Shown here one piece after another: positions 139-5,653 of a stretch of DNA of 21,043 nt. Origin of the DNA: a virus; the IMG/VR virus record IMGVR_UViG_3300044641_002360, positions 1-21,043 of that record. One strand, given 5' to 3'. The position numbers and the translations under genes are program-made. Under the pieces are notes generated by a model. It had not been told where the DNA came from, did not search any database, and worked only from the letters and a program-made list of their open reading frames with translations. Position 1 is the stretch's first letter, and each line of letters begins with the position of its first letter.

Positions 139-356
139 TTACCCCTCCATTCTTGCATTGCCGATACCGCAAACGCAGCACTGGCCCAAAACAGGATGAG
201 CAATACAATGGCCTCCCATAGCTCTTCAGCGAAGTAAGCGATGGCCAGTCCGTCAAAGACGGCGAGAGTAGCAAAGCCCCACAAATACGGGACTGCTTTG
301 TTGGAGTTGTCGGGTTCAATCTTCATATATGCTTGGTAGTGTTTGATTTTATTCAT
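135..356 (-). CDS. Small membrane protein with two predicted spans
   Basis: The 73-residue product has a short charged N-terminus and two hydrophobic segments, roughly residues 23-42 and 48-66, with a short acidic turn (AEELWE) between them. It ends in a charged tail (QEWRGK). This is a helical hairpin in the host inner membrane. It begins just upstream of the helicase C-half stop (overlap at 349-356) and its own stop overlaps the next start as ATGA. Holins can look like this, but the gene sits far from the lysis cassette among replication genes, so I do not call it a holin. Anchoring replication proteins at the membrane or a superinfection role are both only possibilities. Confidence 0.6.
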   Translation of the reverse strand: MNKIKHYQAYMKIEPDNSNKAVPYLWGFATLAVFDGLAIAYFAEELWEAIVLLILFWASAAFAVSAMQEWRGK

Positions 357-933
357 TATGGAACGTAGCGGTTTTGCCTGTAAAGCGTAAGTTTGCGCTC
401 ACGCCGCACGGGCCGTTTCGTTGGATGGGTATGCCAACCTCACGGAACTCTGCGTCATCGGACAGCTTAACAACCATCACGGCTGTAGCGTCTTGCCCGA
501 TTGCGCGACTTTCGCGAGCTTTACCCTGTTCATTTAGTTGCGTAATCGAGATGACTAAGCAACCTAATTCGATGCCAAGTAAGCGCAGACTCCGGCTCAC
601 CTCGGCTACTTCACGCTCACGGCTGCTATCCTTGCCAAGGTCGCACCGCACAAGCTGGATGTAGTCGACAAACAGCACGCCAAGGCCGTCCGGGGACTTC
701 GCCATAGCCCGTGCAGTGGCGCAGATGTTGGCTATGTCGTAGAGATCGTCTCGCACCACCAAACGGCTGTTATTGAGCTTCTGGATGGCACTGTGGACGC
801 CCCTGATGTCGCGCTCGTGCTTCGCCCCTTCAGCAAGCGCACGCAGGCTGACGTTGCCGAGCCGGGCGACGAGACGGTCGATGATCTGGTTAGCTGGCAT
901 CTCAAGTGAGATGACGAGGATTCCTTTGTTCAT
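349..933 (-). CDS. Replicative DnaB-type helicase, C-terminal half (split gene)
   Basis: This 194-residue protein matches the second part of a DnaB RecA-like ATPase domain and lacks Walker A. It opens with the strand and catalytic-glutamate motif (ISLEMP, E11). Walker B follows (VLFVDYIQL, D90), then the H3 sensor motif (ISITQLN, Q132), an H4-like stretch (RAIGQDA) and an arginine-finger motif (IQRNGP, R172). The usual lysine of the KxRNGP finger is replaced by I170. The start is firm: ATG at 931-933 is directly preceded in frame by TAA (934-936), so the ORF cannot extend upstream. The start lies inside the 3' end of the methyltransferase gene (32-base overlap). The matching Walker A half lies at 3010-3720. 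I infer that the two polypeptides assemble into one helicase. Confidence 0.9.
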   Translation of the reverse strand: MNKGILVISLEMPANQIIDRLVARLGNVSLRALAEGAKHERDIRGVHSAIQKLNNSRLVVRDDLYDIANICATARAMAKSPDGLGVLFVDYIQLVRCDLGKDSSREREVAEVSRSLRLLGIELGCLVISITQLNEQGKARESRAIGQDATAVMVVKLSDDAEFREVGIPIQRNGPCGVSANLRFTGKTATFHNE

Positions 934-1693
934 TTAGTAATGTGGTAAAAGCTAACGCTGCGCAGGAAGGCACAACGCCGTTTCCGAGTAACCGCATCCT
1001 GTCCACCCAATCGGAACCCCCATCATCCATTCGCAATAAGATGGGTTCAGTCGTCCCGTCTGCCCAGTCCGCTCCTGGGCCACTGCGCACAGGTAGCTCC
1101 TGTTGTTCATGTGCTGATGGCTCTTGCTTCCAAGCGGCCCACAACCTTTGTACTCGCTCGCTCTGATCGTGGGCCATAATAAAGACGCGCTTCCGCTGGT
1201 GAGGCGCCCCGCATTCAGCCGACGAGAATATGCCCCACGACACTTTGTAACCCATTTCTTCCAAATCGCTGACAACAGTGGAGAGTCCCAGCGTAATATG
1301 TCCTTCGACGTTTTCAAATAGGCAAACTCTTGGCTTGAGAATAGCGATGCCTTTAGCAATGTGTGGCCACAAGTGTCGTTCGTCTTCTGTTCCGAGTCGC
1401 TTTCCTGCTGCGCTGAAAGGCTGACAGGGGTAACCGCCAGTGAGGACGTCCACTCGATCTCGAAAGCTTTCCCAAGGGAAGGTTTTAAGATCCGTCCAAA
1501 CAGGTGCTGCGTCCATGAGTCCCGCTTCCATTTTTGCAACCAAGTTCGCAATGGCGAAAGCTTCGATCTCACAAAGAGCGACTGTGCGCAAAGCTGGGAG
1601 GACTCGCTTAAGTCCAAGCTCAATGCCTCCGTACCCTGCACAGAGGCCAACGTGTGTAATTGTTTCGGTAGTATCCACATTATCGCGTTCCAT
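902..1693 (-). CDS. DNA (cytosine-5) methyltransferase
   Basis: The enzyme would transfer a methyl group from S-adenosylmethionine to C5 of cytosine in phage DNA. From the ATG at 1693 (263 residues) it shows motif I (GLCAGYGG, about residues 16-23), motif IV with catalytic Cys90 (GGYPCQPFS), motif VI (ENV, 127-129), motif VIII (QRKRVFI, 166-172) and a C-terminal motif (LLGNGVVPS, 235-243). The region before the last motif is short, so target recognition is compact. A TTG at 1741 would add 16 residues, but the ATG has AAGG seven bases upstream and fits the neighbour's stop at 1680. No restriction enzyme lies beside it, so it is probably an orphan that shields phage DNA. Its last 32 bases also encode the start of the helicase C-half. 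Confidence 0.92.
   Translation of the reverse strand: MERDNVDTTETITHVGLCAGYGGIELGLKRVLPALRTVALCEIEAFAIANLVAKMEAGLMDAAPVWTDLKTFPWESFRDRVDVLTGGYPCQPFSAAGKRLGTEDERHLWPHIAKGIAILKPRVCLFENVEGHITLGLSTVVSDLEEMGYKVSWGIFSSAECGAPHQRKRVFIMAHDQSERVQRLWAAWKQEPSAHEQQELPVRSGPGADWADGTTEPILLRMDDGGSDWVDRMRLLGNGVVPSCAALAFTTLLNEQRNPRHLT
925..936 (-). repeat. Short direct repeat at 5' end of helicase C-half
   Basis: On the minus strand this reads TAAATGAACAAA. The first TAA (934-936) is an in-frame stop directly before the C-half ATG (931-933). It is the partner of the copy at 3009-3020; the two flank the four-gene block inside the split helicase. In an ungapped join at this repeat the two halves would be in different frames. 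Confidence 0.4.
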
Positions 1694-1922
1694 TACCTGG
1701 CCTTGCAGACGTGTGTGAGTGCTGCCCCGTGTACGGCTCAAGCAGGTACTTCACCTCGATAAGATCCGTCGATTGATTCTCCGGCAGAAGCATAAGCGAC
1801 TCCATCTTTGAGCCTAGCGCGTCTTTCGGGCCGACACAGACGATGTCCTGCGTCTTCTTGGGACGTGGCAGCTCCACGTTTTGCAGCACGTTGGTGCGGC
1901 GAATGAGTACCCAGTCGCTCAT
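1680..1922 (-). CDS. Hypothetical 80-residue protein
   Basis: I do not recognise this family. The product begins MSDWVLIRRTNV, contains a basic PRPKK segment near residue 21 and ends in a hydrophilic tail. No metal-binding or membrane motif is visible. The start at 1922 is well supported: it overlaps the exonuclease stop as ATGA and has a strong Shine-Dalgarno (GGGAGGAGG) a few bases upstream. An ATG at 1934 in the same frame is less likely because it lies within that Shine-Dalgarno region. Placement between an exonuclease and a methyltransferase suggests an accessory role in DNA processing, by context only. Confidence 0.65.
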   Translation of the reverse strand: MSDWVLIRRTNVLQNVELPRPKKTQDIVCVGPKDALGSKMESLMLLPENQSTDLIEVKYLLEPYTGQHSHTSARPGNGTR

Positions 1923-2698
1923 GCCTCCTCCCATCTACGTGGCAACATCACGCGCATCGTTGGTGGCCCGGGCCACACGTCTTGATCGAGACACAGCTTG
2001 TACTGCGATAGCGTCACGTCGAGCTGCTGGTTAGCAATGTCGATGAGTTCCGTGGACGCCTTCACCCACTGGCTCAAGTGAGGTGCTTGCATATCGACAA
2101 CTAGGAAGTAGAAGTCAATGTCCTCTTGGCCGGTGATCTGCTCAAGACCGTAAGTGTACCAAGCGGCCTGCTTATCGTAGCCGAAACCAAAGAACTTGTG
2201 GTCGAATTTCGAGAAGTCGCTGGTCGTCTTTAGATCCACGATGGCTGGCCTACCCTTGATCTCGGTGATCATGTCTGGCCTGCCCTTGCATTGCACGCCG
2301 TCGCGCTCCCAGAACATGGACGCTTCGATAATTTTCGCTGCTGTCACCATCTCAAGCAACGGCTCCACGGCTGCACAGGCACCTTCGACACGCGCACCTT
2401 CGTCTTCGTTAAGGATGACCTTGCCAATGTTCTCTTGGCAAAAGTTCTCCCACGTTAGCTTGCCTTCCTTGGTGCGCCTGTCGCACGCTGGAGCAATAGC
2501 GTACTCGCAGCGCCCCTCAAGAGCGAGGCTGTGGACAAGCGTGCCAAGCTCCATCTCGCGGCTGGGTTTCCACTCTTGACGTTCTTTCCACTTGTAGTAC
2601 GCCGGGCATACTGCGAACGAGTCGAGGCTGTGCTTCGATAGACCGTGCATTCCACGGTAAGTTGTCATCTCTAGGTTTTGTAGTAGTTCTGTTTTCAT
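1919..2698 (-). CDS. PD-(D/E)XK exonuclease, RecE/Cas4-like
   Basis: This is a probable recombination or DNA-degradation exonuclease. From the ATG at 2698 (259 residues) it shows the PD-(D/E)XK core: a GTLVHSLAL helix around residue 52 with H56, E125, the GRPD motif with D142, and IVDLKTT with D155 and K157. The QAAWY motif at 177-181 is typical of the RecE/RecB-nuclease/Cas4 branch. D142, D155 and K157 would hold Mg2+ and catalyse cleavage. Longer starts up to 2812 would run deep into the upstream gene and are rejected. Such enzymes normally work with a single-strand annealing protein; none is obvious here, and the SSB-like protein at 5012-5653 is the nearest candidate partner. It is one of four genes between the helicase halves. 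Confidence 0.85.
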   Translation of the reverse strand: MKTELLQNLEMTTYRGMHGLSKHSLDSFAVCPAYYKWKERQEWKPSREMELGTLVHSLALEGRCEYAIAPACDRRTKEGKLTWENFCQENIGKVILNEDEGARVEGACAAVEPLLEMVTAAKIIEASMFWERDGVQCKGRPDMITEIKGRPAIVDLKTTSDFSKFDHKFFGFGYDKQAAWYTYGLEQITGQEDIDFYFLVVDMQAPHLSQWVKASTELIDIANQQLDVTLSQYKLCLDQDVWPGPPTMRVMLPRRWEEA

Positions 2699-2702
2699 TT
2701 TG

Positions 2703-3017
2703 TTATGGGTTAATTTCAAGCGCCCCGCAGCCGACAATCTTACCGGCTCCGTCACGAATGAGTTTGGTTGGACTAGCCAAATCTGTCCTGTTCGGTAGTG
2801 CAGTACGCACATAGCCAGGGACGATGTACAAGATACCCTTCACGGGATCAGGCAGGTTGCTCACCTTGGCGTCTTTGCAGCACATGATGGGGACACCATC
2901 AACGTCTGCGACTTTACTCAGGTGGCTATGCACCTTTACGCTATAGCCGCTGGGTTCAATCACGCCGTAACCAGTGATGGTAATGTCGTGAGGTGTAAGG
3001 TTTACGAGTTTATTCAT
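2703..3017 (-). CDS. Conserved phage-type small protein with NLTPHD motif
   Basis: The 104-residue product starts MNKLVNLTPHDITI and ends in a GAGKIVGCGALEI segment. I recall small proteins with an NLTPH opening from phage and actinobacterial genomes, but I know of no established function. The sequence looks like a compact beta-rich domain (alternating hydrophobics, ILYIVPGYV around residue 63) without a catalytic signature. The start at 3017 lies inside the stop region of the helicase N-half (TAAATGAATAAA), so the gene begins where the helicase reading frame is interrupted. It is the first of four genes separating the two helicase halves. Confidence 0.7.
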   Translation of the reverse strand: MNKLVNLTPHDITITGYGVIEPSGYSVKVHSHLSKVADVDGVPIMCCKDAKVSNLPDPVKGILYIVPGYVRTALPNRTDLASPTKLIRDGAGKIVGCGALEINP

Positions 3018-3020
3018 TTA
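3009..3020 (-). repeat. Short direct repeat at 3' end of helicase N-half
   Basis: On the minus strand this reads TAAATGAATAAA. It holds both the helicase N-half stop (TAA, 3010-3012) and the next gene's ATG (3015-3017). It matches 11 of 12 bases with the sequence at 925-936, which holds the start of the helicase C-half. The similarity could be a trace of how the gene was split, or only a shared start-codon context, because the gene at 135-356 also begins AATGAATAAA. Confidence 0.4.
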
Positions 3021-3720
3021 TTAGATTTGCAATTATGTTGAGTGCCAGCATGGTTTTGCCAGATTTGGTTTCACCACCGATGACAACGAAGTCTCCGTAT
3101 CTGATTGGGCAGATGTTGTCGATAGCAGAATAACCTGTTTTTATCCGCATCGACTCGTCGTCGCCGCTCTCGTAGCGTGTCAGCGCATTGAGCAGGAGCG
3201 CCTTAGTGTCCATTACTTTGGGCGGAGCAAGCTCACGGGACAGTCCCTCGACCTTCATAACGACGTCGCTTAGAAGCTCCGGCGTCTGCCTGGTTGAGTC
3301 ACCGATTGATAAAAGCGTCTCGTAAGCTACATGCTGCAAGGTGCGGCGCTTGGCCGTGTTCTTGACGATGTCCACAAGGTCGCCGATGGCACCAGCGATT
3401 GGCATGAGCGTGTATAGGTCGCTCAGTTGGTGGAACTCGGTCGCTGGCAGCGTCTCGCGGCACTTCTCGAAGATTACGCGGATCTCGGACGACGCATTGC
3501 GGGACTGCTGCTGCAAGATGATCTCGCAGACTCGGTGACTAAGCGGGTCGAAGATGTCTGATACCTTGAAGTTCTTCTCCGAGATGTGGTGCAAGAAGAC
3601 CTCGGGATGATTCAGCGCAATTGAAGCTATGCCGCGCTCGGCTTCCAGCGCAGTTGGCACCACCGTGTCAGGTGGCAACTCCACCGGCCTGCGCCTACCA
3701 GCTTTCTTGTGTGCTTCCAT
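3010..3720 (-). CDS. Replicative DnaB-type helicase, N-terminal half with Walker A (split gene)
   Basis: The 236-residue product carries a DnaB N-terminal domain (about 20-135, starting at the ALEAERG helix), the linker helix (about 140-190) and the first part of the RecA-like domain (TGYSAIDNI, then FVVIGGETKSGKTMLAL). Walker A is G216-xxxx-G221-K222-T223. Translation stops 13 residues after T223, at the point where an ordinary DnaB continues into the strand carrying SLEM. That strand and all later motifs are encoded at 349-933. The protein therefore binds nucleotide through an incomplete domain and presumably needs the other half to hydrolyse it. The ATG at 3720 overlaps the preceding gene by 26 bases. 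There is no intein-like extension after the helix. Confidence 0.9.
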   Translation of the reverse strand: MEAHKKAGRRRPVELPPDTVVPTALEAERGIASIALNHPEVFLHHISEKNFKVSDIFDPLSHRVCEIILQQQSRNASSEIRVIFEKCRETLPATEFHQLSDLYTLMPIAGAIGDLVDIVKNTAKRRTLQHVAYETLLSIGDSTRQTPELLSDVVMKVEGLSRELAPPKVMDTKALLLNALTRYESGDDESMRIKTGYSAIDNICPIRYGDFVVIGGETKSGKTMLALNIIANLINE

Positions 3721-4243
3721 TGGTGGACATTAAGCTGTCGCGCTTGAGTAGGGTTTTGATCGGTGTACGCACCATTGACGATGCTCGGGATAGCCAACCG
3801 TTGAGGAAGCGCCCCATGCCGCGAGGTGTCTTGCGACGTTGGGGGTCAGCTTCGAGCCAAGCGTGGGCTTTGAGTAGCTCCTGCTCGACGGTCTTCTCGC
3901 CGTAGATGATGACGAGATCTTTCATCAAGCCAGGCGGCACCTGCCACTCCTTGCCGTCGATAGTTGTGTACGTCATGTTGTACATGCTCATCGTACTGCC
4001 TGACTCGGGGTCTTTGCAGAGATGGTCGATAAGCTCGTTGACGGAAGTGTACCGCTTGCCGGACGACTCAAGTTCTTTGTTCGTGACGATGCACATGGCA
4101 TCTGCCAAGTCCTGCGCAGGCTGCACAGGCTCGGGTGTCACAGGTGACTCTAATTTGCTGATGAGTTGCGCTGACTCTTCCAGAGGGACGATAAGCTCTA
4201 CCTTAGTGCCGGAAATGTATGTGATGTTAATGCTTATATTCAT
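3695..4243 (-). CDS. Replication-linked protein with C-terminal WL motif (possible helicase adaptor)
   Basis: The 182-residue protein has a beta-like N-terminus (about 1-22), a Pro/Glu-rich linker (31-45), a middle region, and a C-terminal module at about 95-155. The module reads WQVPPGLMKDLV, then an ELLKAHAWLEADP helix, a basic RRKTPRGM turn and RFLNGWLSRA. I recall this tryptophan/leucine pattern at the ends of other phage replication proteins. A paralogous copy is encoded directly upstream (4227-4478). The gene lies directly before the Walker A half of the helicase, overlapping it by 26 bases, so a loader or adaptor role is a reasonable inference. The last 14 residues are basic then polar and come from the overlap region. 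Confidence 0.7.
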   Translation of the reverse strand: MNISINITYISGTKVELIVPLEESAQLISKLESPVTPEPVQPAQDLADAMCIVTNKELESSGKRYTSVNELIDHLCKDPESGSTMSMYNMTYTTIDGKEWQVPPGLMKDLVIIYGEKTVEQELLKAHAWLEADPQRRKTPRGMGRFLNGWLSRASSMVRTPIKTLLKRDSLMSTNGSTQESW

Positions 4244-4525: not shown

Positions 4526-4861
4526 TTATTTGGCCAAACCTTCCATGCCATCCCTGAGCAGCTTGAAGAACAGTTCACTGCTCATCGTCACTAGCCAAGG
4601 TGTACGGTTTTTCTTGTGAGCAACGATCCACGGTTTCCCAGCACCATCGCGCTCGGCCTGCTCTGTGGCTTTGATTAGATTGAGGTTCTCGACAAACTTC
4701 ACCTCTTGGTGGAGTCCGCGCAGCTCCTCACAGATGACATCCGGGCTGTCCGTTCCTCCGGCAAACTGCTGACCACGCCTTGCAGTGAAGCCAGCAGCCC
4801 GGAGTTCGTCGCGCCACATGCGCTCGCCTCTACACCCCTTGGCTCTGGAGTTTATTGGCAT
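4526..4861 (-). CDS. Holliday-junction-resolvase-like PD-(D/E)XK nuclease
   Basis: From ATG 4861 (111 residues) the protein starts MPINSRAKGCRGERMWRDEL, with a conserved helix containing E14, a basic turn (ARRGQQF), then SPDVI with D41 and HQEVKF with E53 and K55. NLNLIKATEQAERD follows. E14, D41, E53 and K55 match the catalytic layout of archaeal Hjc-like and phage resolvases, which cut four-way junctions or branched replication intermediates. An in-frame GTG at 4894 would extend it within the upstream HTH gene; the ATG, with GGAAG about nine bases upstream, is preferred. It overlaps the upstream gene by 32 bases. A VRR-type or other structure-specific nuclease is an alternative. Confidence 0.8.
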   Translation of the reverse strand: MPINSRAKGCRGERMWRDELRAAGFTARRGQQFAGGTDSPDVICEELRGLHQEVKFVENLNLIKATEQAERDGAGKPWIVAHKKNRTPWLVTMSSELFFKLLRDGMEGLAK

Positions 4862-5018
4862 CGCGTTTAGCTTCCAGCCAAGCGTTGACTTCACTTAGAT
4901 CAAACCGCAGGCAACGTGCGCTGATCCTGTGGTGAGGGATCTTGTTCTCGCGTGCCCACTTCAGGATTGTCTGAAGCGTGACACCGCACAACGCGGAGAT
5001 GTCTTTGGCTTTTACCAT
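4830..5018 (-). CDS. Excisionase/MerR-type helix-turn-helix protein
   Basis: The 62-residue product has the classic small HTH_17 layout: VKAKDISALCGVTLQTILKWAREN (residues 2-25) forms the helix-turn-helix, followed by a short wing (IPHHRISARCLRF) and a terminal helix (DLSEVNAWLEAKR). Proteins of this type bind DNA as excisionases or small regulators. With no integrase in the window, a role in transcription control or origin/terminus recognition is more likely than excision. Its ATG (5018) overlaps the SSB-like gene's stop by 7 bases, and its own 3' end overlaps the nuclease gene. Confidence 0.75.
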   Translation of the reverse strand: MVKAKDISALCGVTLQTILKWARENKIPHHRISARCLRFDLSEVNAWLEAKRDANKLQSQGV

Positions 5019-5653
5019 TTGAGATCGTCCTCCTCAAGTTCAGCGGGTTCGTCCTTCTTCACCGGCTTGGTCTGCGCTGAGGGGAATGCCTTCGCAAATC
5101 CCGCACGATCTGCGGAGATAAACAAGCTGGTAGCAATAGCCTGAAGCTGCTCGGGTGTCACCTGTGCCTGACCGCCAACCCACTCGGCTGCTTTGATGGC
5201 TTCAGCCATCAATTGCGCCGCCTGAAACAGCGCCCGCTTGGCGTCAGCTACGGTGAGCGACACTGGCGAGCTTGCCTGCACTGGCTTGCGCGGGCCTGCT
5301 GCGGCTACGGCTGCACCAGCATCGTCGATGATCGCGCATTGATCGGTGATCTTAAGTTCATTCTCGCCGCTATGGGTCGAGTGCTTCACGCTGATGCCCT
5401 GGAGCCCCTTCTTGCCAGCCTGTGACTTAAGAGTCACCATCTGTCCCTTAAGGTCACCCATCTCGTCCGGCAACCAGAACGATGCACGGCACTCGCCGGT
5501 GGAGTCCTGAAGGACACAGTTCTGTACCCGCCAGGGGCCAAACTTGCCCTCGCCAGTTTTAGGCGGGAACGTCGCCTTGATCGTCACCCGCATTTCTCCG
5601 ATGACGCTGCCATCGGCCAAGTTCTGAATGTCGCTAATTTGTGCTACTTTCAT
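5012..5653 (-). CDS. OB-fold single-stranded-DNA-binding-like protein
   Basis: The 213-residue protein begins with a beta-rich region (about 1-105) with OB-fold character: a VIGEMRVTIKATFPPK strand, a WRVQNCVLQDSTGECRASFW segment, MVTLKSQAGKKGLQGISVK, then ELKITDQCAII. An Ala/Pro linker follows, then a helical part (about 133-190). The C-terminus is strongly acidic and aromatic-tipped (ELEEDDLKW). Acidic tails ending in an aromatic residue are typical of phage and bacterial SSB proteins, where the tail recruits replication partners. It probably coats single-stranded DNA during replication and recombination. No Shine-Dalgarno is visible before the ATG at 5653; the leader is AT-rich. Confidence 0.7.
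   Translation of the reverse strand: MKVAQISDIQNLADGSVIGEMRVTIKATFPPKTGEGKFGPWRVQNCVLQDSTGECRASFWLPDEMGDLKGQMVTLKSQAGKKGLQGISVKHSTHSGENELKITDQCAIIDDAGAAVAAAGPRKPVQASSPVSLTVADAKRALFQAAQLMAEAIKAAEWVGGQAQVTPEQLQAIATSLFISADRAGFAKAFPSAQTKPVKKDEPAELEEDDLKW

What the first reader, a model, noticed from the sequence alone, without database searches (positions are those of the whole stretch)
349..3720. DnaB-type replicative helicase split between Walker A and the rest of its ATPase core
Bases 3720-3010 encode the N-terminal domain, linker and Walker A (GGETKSGKT) and stop 13 residues later. Bases 933-349 encode a separate protein that begins exactly where DnaB would continue (ILVISLEMP), with Walker B, sensor and arginine-finger motifs. 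The C-half has its own ATG, with an in-frame TAA immediately upstream, so it cannot come from read-through. About 2.1 kb and four intact, overlapping genes lie between the halves. All other key residues are present in order, which argues against decay. If both proteins are made, an ATP site must be rebuilt from two chains within the RecA fold, not between domains.
Basis: partly seen in the sequence, partly recalled or inferred. Interest (0 to 1): 0.88.

Follow-up and report, generated by a model that had tools for sequence, protein, structure and literature searches.

The report
Phage replication helicase in two pieces
A whole lineage of environmental phages makes its DNA-unwinding motor (a DnaB-type helicase) as two separate proteins, with the break inside the ATP-burning core, and both pieces are so well conserved that they almost certainly come together to work as one enzyme.

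Summary
In the window, 3720-3010(-) encodes a DnaB N-terminal domain, linker and Walker A. 933-349(-) encodes the rest of the RecA core, starting at the next beta strand. The same two-gene arrangement occurs in over 100 IMG/VR contigs, with gaps of 1.3-3.8 kb of variable cargo and 75 distinct intervening sequences. No continuous copy was found in this lineage. All 27 phage records tested hold exactly these two DnaB_C fragments and no intact DnaB. Both halves evolve under strong purifying selection (median dN/dS 0.04), every catalytic motif is invariant or nearly so, and the halves map end to end on solved DnaB structures. An intact sister gene (one 431-432 aa ORF) sits at the syntenic position in other uncultured phages. 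A tree puts all split forms in one clade (97/99), so there was one ancient fission. Intein, intron, read-through, excision and decay are all disfavoured. The best reading is a two-polypeptide helicase that rebuilds its ATPase site non-covalently. It resembles phage 'genes-in-pieces' enzymes (NrdA, gp43, T4 topoisomerase) but is new for a replicative helicase as far as I found. Assembly and activity are inferred, not shown.

The parts
3010..3720 (-). N half of the helicase: DnaB N-terminal domain, linker, beta1, Walker A (GGETKSGKT) and helix alpha1; 236 aa
349..933 (-). C half of the helicase: beta2 with SLEMP (catalytic Glu), Walker B (VDYIQL), H3 sensor (ITQLNEQGK), arginine finger (QRNGPCG); 194 aa
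2703..3017 (-). intervening gene 1, 104 aa, function unknown (phrog_30542-like); its start overlaps the N half's stop
1919..2698 (-). intervening gene 2, exonuclease VIII-like PDDEXK nuclease (DUF3799); present in 75 of 75 distinct gaps
1680..1934 (-). intervening gene 3, 84 aa, no family match
902..1693 (-). intervening gene 4, C5 cytosine DNA methylase; variable cargo, its end overlaps the C half's start
3695..4243 (-). upstream neighbour gene (182 aa); its homologue also directly precedes the intact sister helicase, so the N half sits at the ancestral dnaB locus

Best explanation
The locus encodes one DnaB-family replicative helicase in two polypeptides. One ancestral, intact phage dnaB was broken in the surface turn between helix alpha1 (after Walker A) and strand beta2, where a nuclease-containing gene cassette came to lie between the halves. 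The two halves are translated separately and fold together without covalent joining, so that beta1-P-loop-alpha1 of the N protein completes the sheet of the C protein. Six such pairs would then form the usual ring. By the known DnaB mechanism each ATP site would then use three chains: the P-loop of an N protein, the Glu/Asp/Gln of its C partner, and the Arg finger of the neighbouring C protein. Shown here: the split, its single origin, its conservation, purifying selection, the intact sister, the absence of another DnaB in the records. Inferred: assembly, ring formation, ATPase and helicase activity.
For: Same split in over 100 contigs, with N halves down to 47% and C halves to about 67% identity to the window. 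Invariant or nearly invariant motifs: in A2, G215, G216, K219, G221, K222, T223, M224; in A1, SLEMPA, DY, Q93-L94, ITQLNEQGK, QR-GPCG. The P-loop part of the N half is more conserved than its NTD (0.87 versus 0.67), as expected only if it still makes an ATP site. Median dN/dS is 0.039 and 0.040 for the two halves. Complementary, non-overlapping mapping on phrog_19 and on solved DnaB. The C-half model (pLDDT 89) matches DnaB residues 231-441 (Z 19.5) and the N-half model matches the DnaB NTD (Z 16.4); the isolated P-loop segment is predicted poorly (pLDDT 42-59), as expected of half a fold. The joined sequence aligns in one piece over 95% with intact phage DnaB. No other DnaB in 27 phage records; no PolA or SF2 helicase in 21 of them. 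Intact sister at the same locus and single origin of the split. Precedents for functional split phage enzymes: PMC2988022.
Against: No expression, complex or activity data. Co-folding of the two chains could not be run. Records lack completeness estimates, so a second helicase in a missing part cannot be wholly excluded, although most records are 37-44 kb, a size consistent with near-complete genomes. The host's own DnaB could serve replication, leaving other roles for the fragments.
Confidence: 0.84

Rival explanations
1. The two proteins do not form a motor of their own. Each binds the host DnaB or primase separately, for example as hijacking or inhibiting fragments.
For: The phages seem to lack a DNA polymerase A and probably use host replication. 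Phage proteins that act on host DnaB or its loader are known (general knowledge; PMC4887207 is one on the DnaI loader).
Against: A P-loop without the rest of the RecA fold cannot bind ATP, yet it is the best conserved part of the N half. Arg finger, Glu and sensor are invariant in the C half. Both are kept together in every record tested.
Confidence: 0.1
2. The halves are joined after all, by split inteins, trans-splicing introns or programmed excision of the intervening DNA.
For: Split inteins are known at helicase genes of phages ('fractured genes', Dassa et al. 2009, cited in PMC10343443; content from general knowledge).
Against: No intein sequence on either side: the N half stops 13 aa after Walker A and the C half starts at beta2. 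No Rfam family in the window. Sequence upstream of the C half is unrelated between relatives whose C halves are about 90% identical in DNA, so no conserved 3' splice signal. No shared direct repeat beyond the null. Reading frames of the halves vary relative to each other. No excised or joined form in the IMG/VR pattern scan.
Confidence: 0.03
3. Decay: a broken helicase gene on its way out, replaced by the host enzyme.
For: Gene is interrupted; the phages may use host enzymes.
Against: Median dN/dS about 0.04 for both halves over 82 and 73 distinct sequences; all motifs kept; no half lost in 27 records; long divergence after a single split.
Confidence: 0.01
4. Assembly or binning error.
For: Metagenomic contigs only.
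Against: Independent contigs from many samples, 75 distinct intervening sequences, the same two break points.
Confidence: 0.01

Closest known systems
DnaB-family replicative helicases (PF03796, phrog_19; e.g. P1 Ban, Pseudomonas phage F10/HU1 helicases)
   Same: Full domain order and all catalytic motifs, summed over two chains; joined sequence aligns in one piece at 27% over 95% to HU1-type phage helicases; C half 34% to P1 Ban
   Different: Two polypeptides; break inside the RecA core between alpha1 and beta2
Intact sister helicase of uncultured phages (IMGVR_UViG_3300034012_001325, 3300046009_007989)
   Same: Same locus (same preceding gene, same RusA-like resolvase nearby), C half 43%, N half about 30%, nearest in the tree
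   Different: One continuous 431-432 aa ORF; linker GAPG where the split falls
Phage 'genes-in-pieces' enzymes: Aeh1 NrdA, Aeromonas phage 25/44RR gp43A/B, T4 topoisomerase gp39/gp60 (PMC2988022)
   Same: Essential replication-related enzyme split by inserted DNA into separate coding regions with no covalent rejoining; halves work together
   Different: Those insertions are homing endonuclease genes or untranslated spacers; here the constant intervening gene is an ExoVIII-like exonuclease with exchangeable cargo. Here the split is fixed across a diverged lineage and cuts the ATP-binding core
'Fractured genes' with split inteins, e.g. gp41 helicase (Dassa et al. 2009, cited in PMC10343443)
   Same: Phage helicase gene in two parts with genes between
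   Different: No intein parts, so no protein splicing

Membership tests
DnaB-family replicative helicase | N-terminal helical domain | tested here: met
   N-half model Z 16.4 to DnaB residues 24-175 of 7t22
DnaB-family replicative helicase | Walker A, catalytic Glu, Walker B, H3 sensor, arginine finger in order | tested here: met
DnaB-family replicative helicase | RecA-type core fold | tested here: met
   C half Z 19.5 to 4esv 231-441; beta1 to alpha1 supplied by the N half by sequence
DnaB-family replicative helicase | Single polypeptide per subunit | tested here: not met
   this is the usual state rather than a definition of the family
DnaB-family replicative helicase | Hexameric ring with 5'-3' unwinding | not testable with these tools
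   no complex prediction or assay available
Phage genes-in-pieces enzymes | Gene continuous in relatives | tested here: met
   intact sister ORF at the syntenic place
Phage genes-in-pieces enzymes | Split caused by an inserted homing endonuclease gene or intercistronic spacer | tested here: inconclusive
   inserted genes present; the four in the window show no homing endonuclease family; cargo of relatives not scanned one by one; the original inserting element is unknown
Phage genes-in-pieces enzymes | Halves assemble to an active enzyme | not testable with these tools
   no assay or co-folding available here
Split-intein fractured genes | N- and C-intein fragments fused to the halves | tested here: not met
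Trans-spliced intron genes | Conserved intron parts flanking the halves | tested here: not met
   Rfam none; upstream of C half not conserved

The most novel reading that the evidence does not exclude
The split is not merely tolerated but used. Because no ATP site exists until the two chains meet, the phage can control when and where a ring assembles (for example loader-free assembly on DNA, or staged expression of the halves). This would be a replicative motor whose every ATP site is built from three polypeptides.
Probability: 0.2. Interest if true: 0.88.

Novelty: new variant of a known kind. Interest (0 to 1): 0.74.

Why it matters
If confirmed it would be a natural replicative helicase, and a P-loop motor, whose Walker A and catalytic residues lie on different proteins, stable over long evolution. 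It would show that the central RecA fold can be cut between alpha1 and beta2 and still power a processive ring. It would also give a ready-made two-component switch for studying ring loading and ATP-site assembly. For annotation, it warns that 'truncated DnaB' calls in phages can be halves of a working enzyme.

Tried and rejected
Second intact DnaB elsewhere: none in 27 phage records. SF2 helicase and PolA: none in 21 of these plus the intact sister. Rfam introns in the window: none. Direct repeats at the two break points that could drive excision: longest shared word 6.9 on average versus 6.4 in shuffles; the 8-mer TAAATGAA in the window would not restore the frame and is limited to part of the lineage. 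Long open frame upstream of the C half in L145/L146: it is a shadow frame of the overlapping upstream gene, not a fusion. N half against cultured phages at 1e-5: no match on its own, matched only when joined to the C half. Literature: no natural split DnaB found in seven searches of the open-access library, which does not cover most subscription journals.

Full report
Observation. Both ORFs are present at the stated coordinates. The N half (3720-3010, minus strand) ends 13 residues after GGETKSGKT. The C half (933-349) begins MNKGILVISLEMP with an in-frame TAA directly before its ATG. Four same-strand genes lie between: an unknown 104-aa gene, an exonuclease VIII-like PDDEXK protein, an 84-aa gene and a C5 methylase. 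On DnaB profiles the halves are complementary: PF03796 2-44 and 49-255; phrog_19 154-377 and 381-580; PDB 2r6a 11-227 and 233-431. Joined, they align in one piece over 95% of the query with intact phage helicases such as that of Pseudomonas phage HU1 (27% identity).

Not an assembly error, not decay. Searching IMG/VR with either half returned over 100 relatives. Wherever one contig holds both halves they are in the same order and separated by about 1.3 to 3.8 kb; no locus has a gap below 1 kb. In 27 phage records, most of 37-44 kb, a DnaB_C search finds exactly two fragments, ending and starting at the same profile position, and no intact DnaB. Pairwise dN/dS (NG86, dS 0.1-0.8) has medians of 0.039 for the N half and 0.040 for the C half over 82 and 73 distinct sequences. 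Walker A residues in the N half, and SLEMP, DY-QL, ITQLNEQGK and QR-GPCG in the C half, are invariant or nearly so in representatives down to about 50% (N) and 65% (C) identity. The P-loop segment is the best conserved part of the N half.

Where it came from. A DNA pattern designed to catch a joined gene found seven IMG/VR contigs. None belongs to the split lineage, but four carry a continuous sister gene; it is a complete 431-432 aa ORF in two of them. The junction reads GGTTGSGKTMLALNIVANILREGAPGACVICSLEMP in the sister and GGETKSGKTMLALNIIANLINE / MNKGILVISLEMP in the split form. In the sister phage G029 the gene directly before dnaB is a homologue of window ORF 3695-4243, and the RusA-like resolvase nearby is 78% identical to window 4526-4894, so the N half sits at the ancestral locus. 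A maximum-likelihood tree of joined sequences puts all 19 split forms together (97/99) with the intact sister nearest: one fission, then long maintenance. The exonuclease is in 75 of 75 distinct gaps; other cargo (methylase, dNMP kinase, small genes) varies.

How it is expressed. Relatives whose C halves are about 90% identical in DNA can have unrelated sequence right up to the C-half ATG, and the relative reading frame of the halves varies. This rules out read-through and makes trans-splicing or frame-restoring excision very unlikely; shared repeats at the break points do not exceed shuffles. No intein parts and no Rfam intron are present. Many gene junctions here are start/stop overlaps, which suggests translational coupling (inference).

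Structure. The C half alone is predicted with confidence (pLDDT 89, pTM 0.82) and matches DnaB residues 231-441 (Z 19.5, 2.0 A over 191 residues). The N half gives a good DnaB N-terminal domain (Z 16.4), but its beta1-P-loop-alpha1 segment is poorly predicted alone (pLDDT 42-59). That is what a fragment needing its partner would show, though it is not proof. In the known RecA topology beta1 lies in the middle of the sheet (general knowledge), so the N half would complete the sheet of the C half.

Mechanism. Most likely the two proteins assemble non-covalently into DnaB-like subunits and then a ring. With the Arg finger acting across subunits as in DnaB (general knowledge), each ATP site would use three chains. 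Shown: gene structure, conservation, selection, single origin, no alternative DnaB in the records. Inferred: assembly, ring, activity. The main rival, that the fragments act separately on host DnaB, is not excluded, but fits poorly with the joint conservation of an ATP site.

Known or new. Phage replication enzymes split by inserted DNA, with halves that assemble or are thought to, are documented: Aeh1 NrdA, gp43A/B of Aeromonas phages, T4 topoisomerase (PMC2988022). Split-intein 'fractured' phage genes are a different case (Dassa et al. 2009, cited in PMC10343443). I found no report of a natural split DnaB-type helicase in the open-access papers searched. I therefore rate it a new variant of a known kind: a genes-in-pieces replicative helicase cut within the ATPase core and fixed in a lineage.

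Noticed in passing
L439:15959-18081 (phage G013, IMGVR_UViG_3300028025_000004): A YcaO plus TfuA gene pair on the strand opposite to its replication genes in a split-helicase phage.
   Followed up: partly
L221 / L446 (JAFMIZ010000069.1): A 13.4-kb phage contig with the same split helicase is binned in a Pedosphaera MAG that has its own intact dnaB; a weak host hint.
   Followed up: partly
window 349-3720 and relatives: Cargo between the halves is exchanged precisely at gene boundaries with start/stop overlaps (TAATG, ATGA), as if cassettes insert at such overlaps.
   Followed up: partly
window 5012-5653: 213-aa protein next to the resolvase that looks OB-fold/SSB-like by eye but matches no PHROG; its homologue in G013 (L439:7598-8275) matches no Pfam family.
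   Followed up: no
relatives G001-G023: Phages of about 40 kb with no PolA and no SF2 helicase detected; the split DnaB is the only replication motor found.
   Followed up: partly
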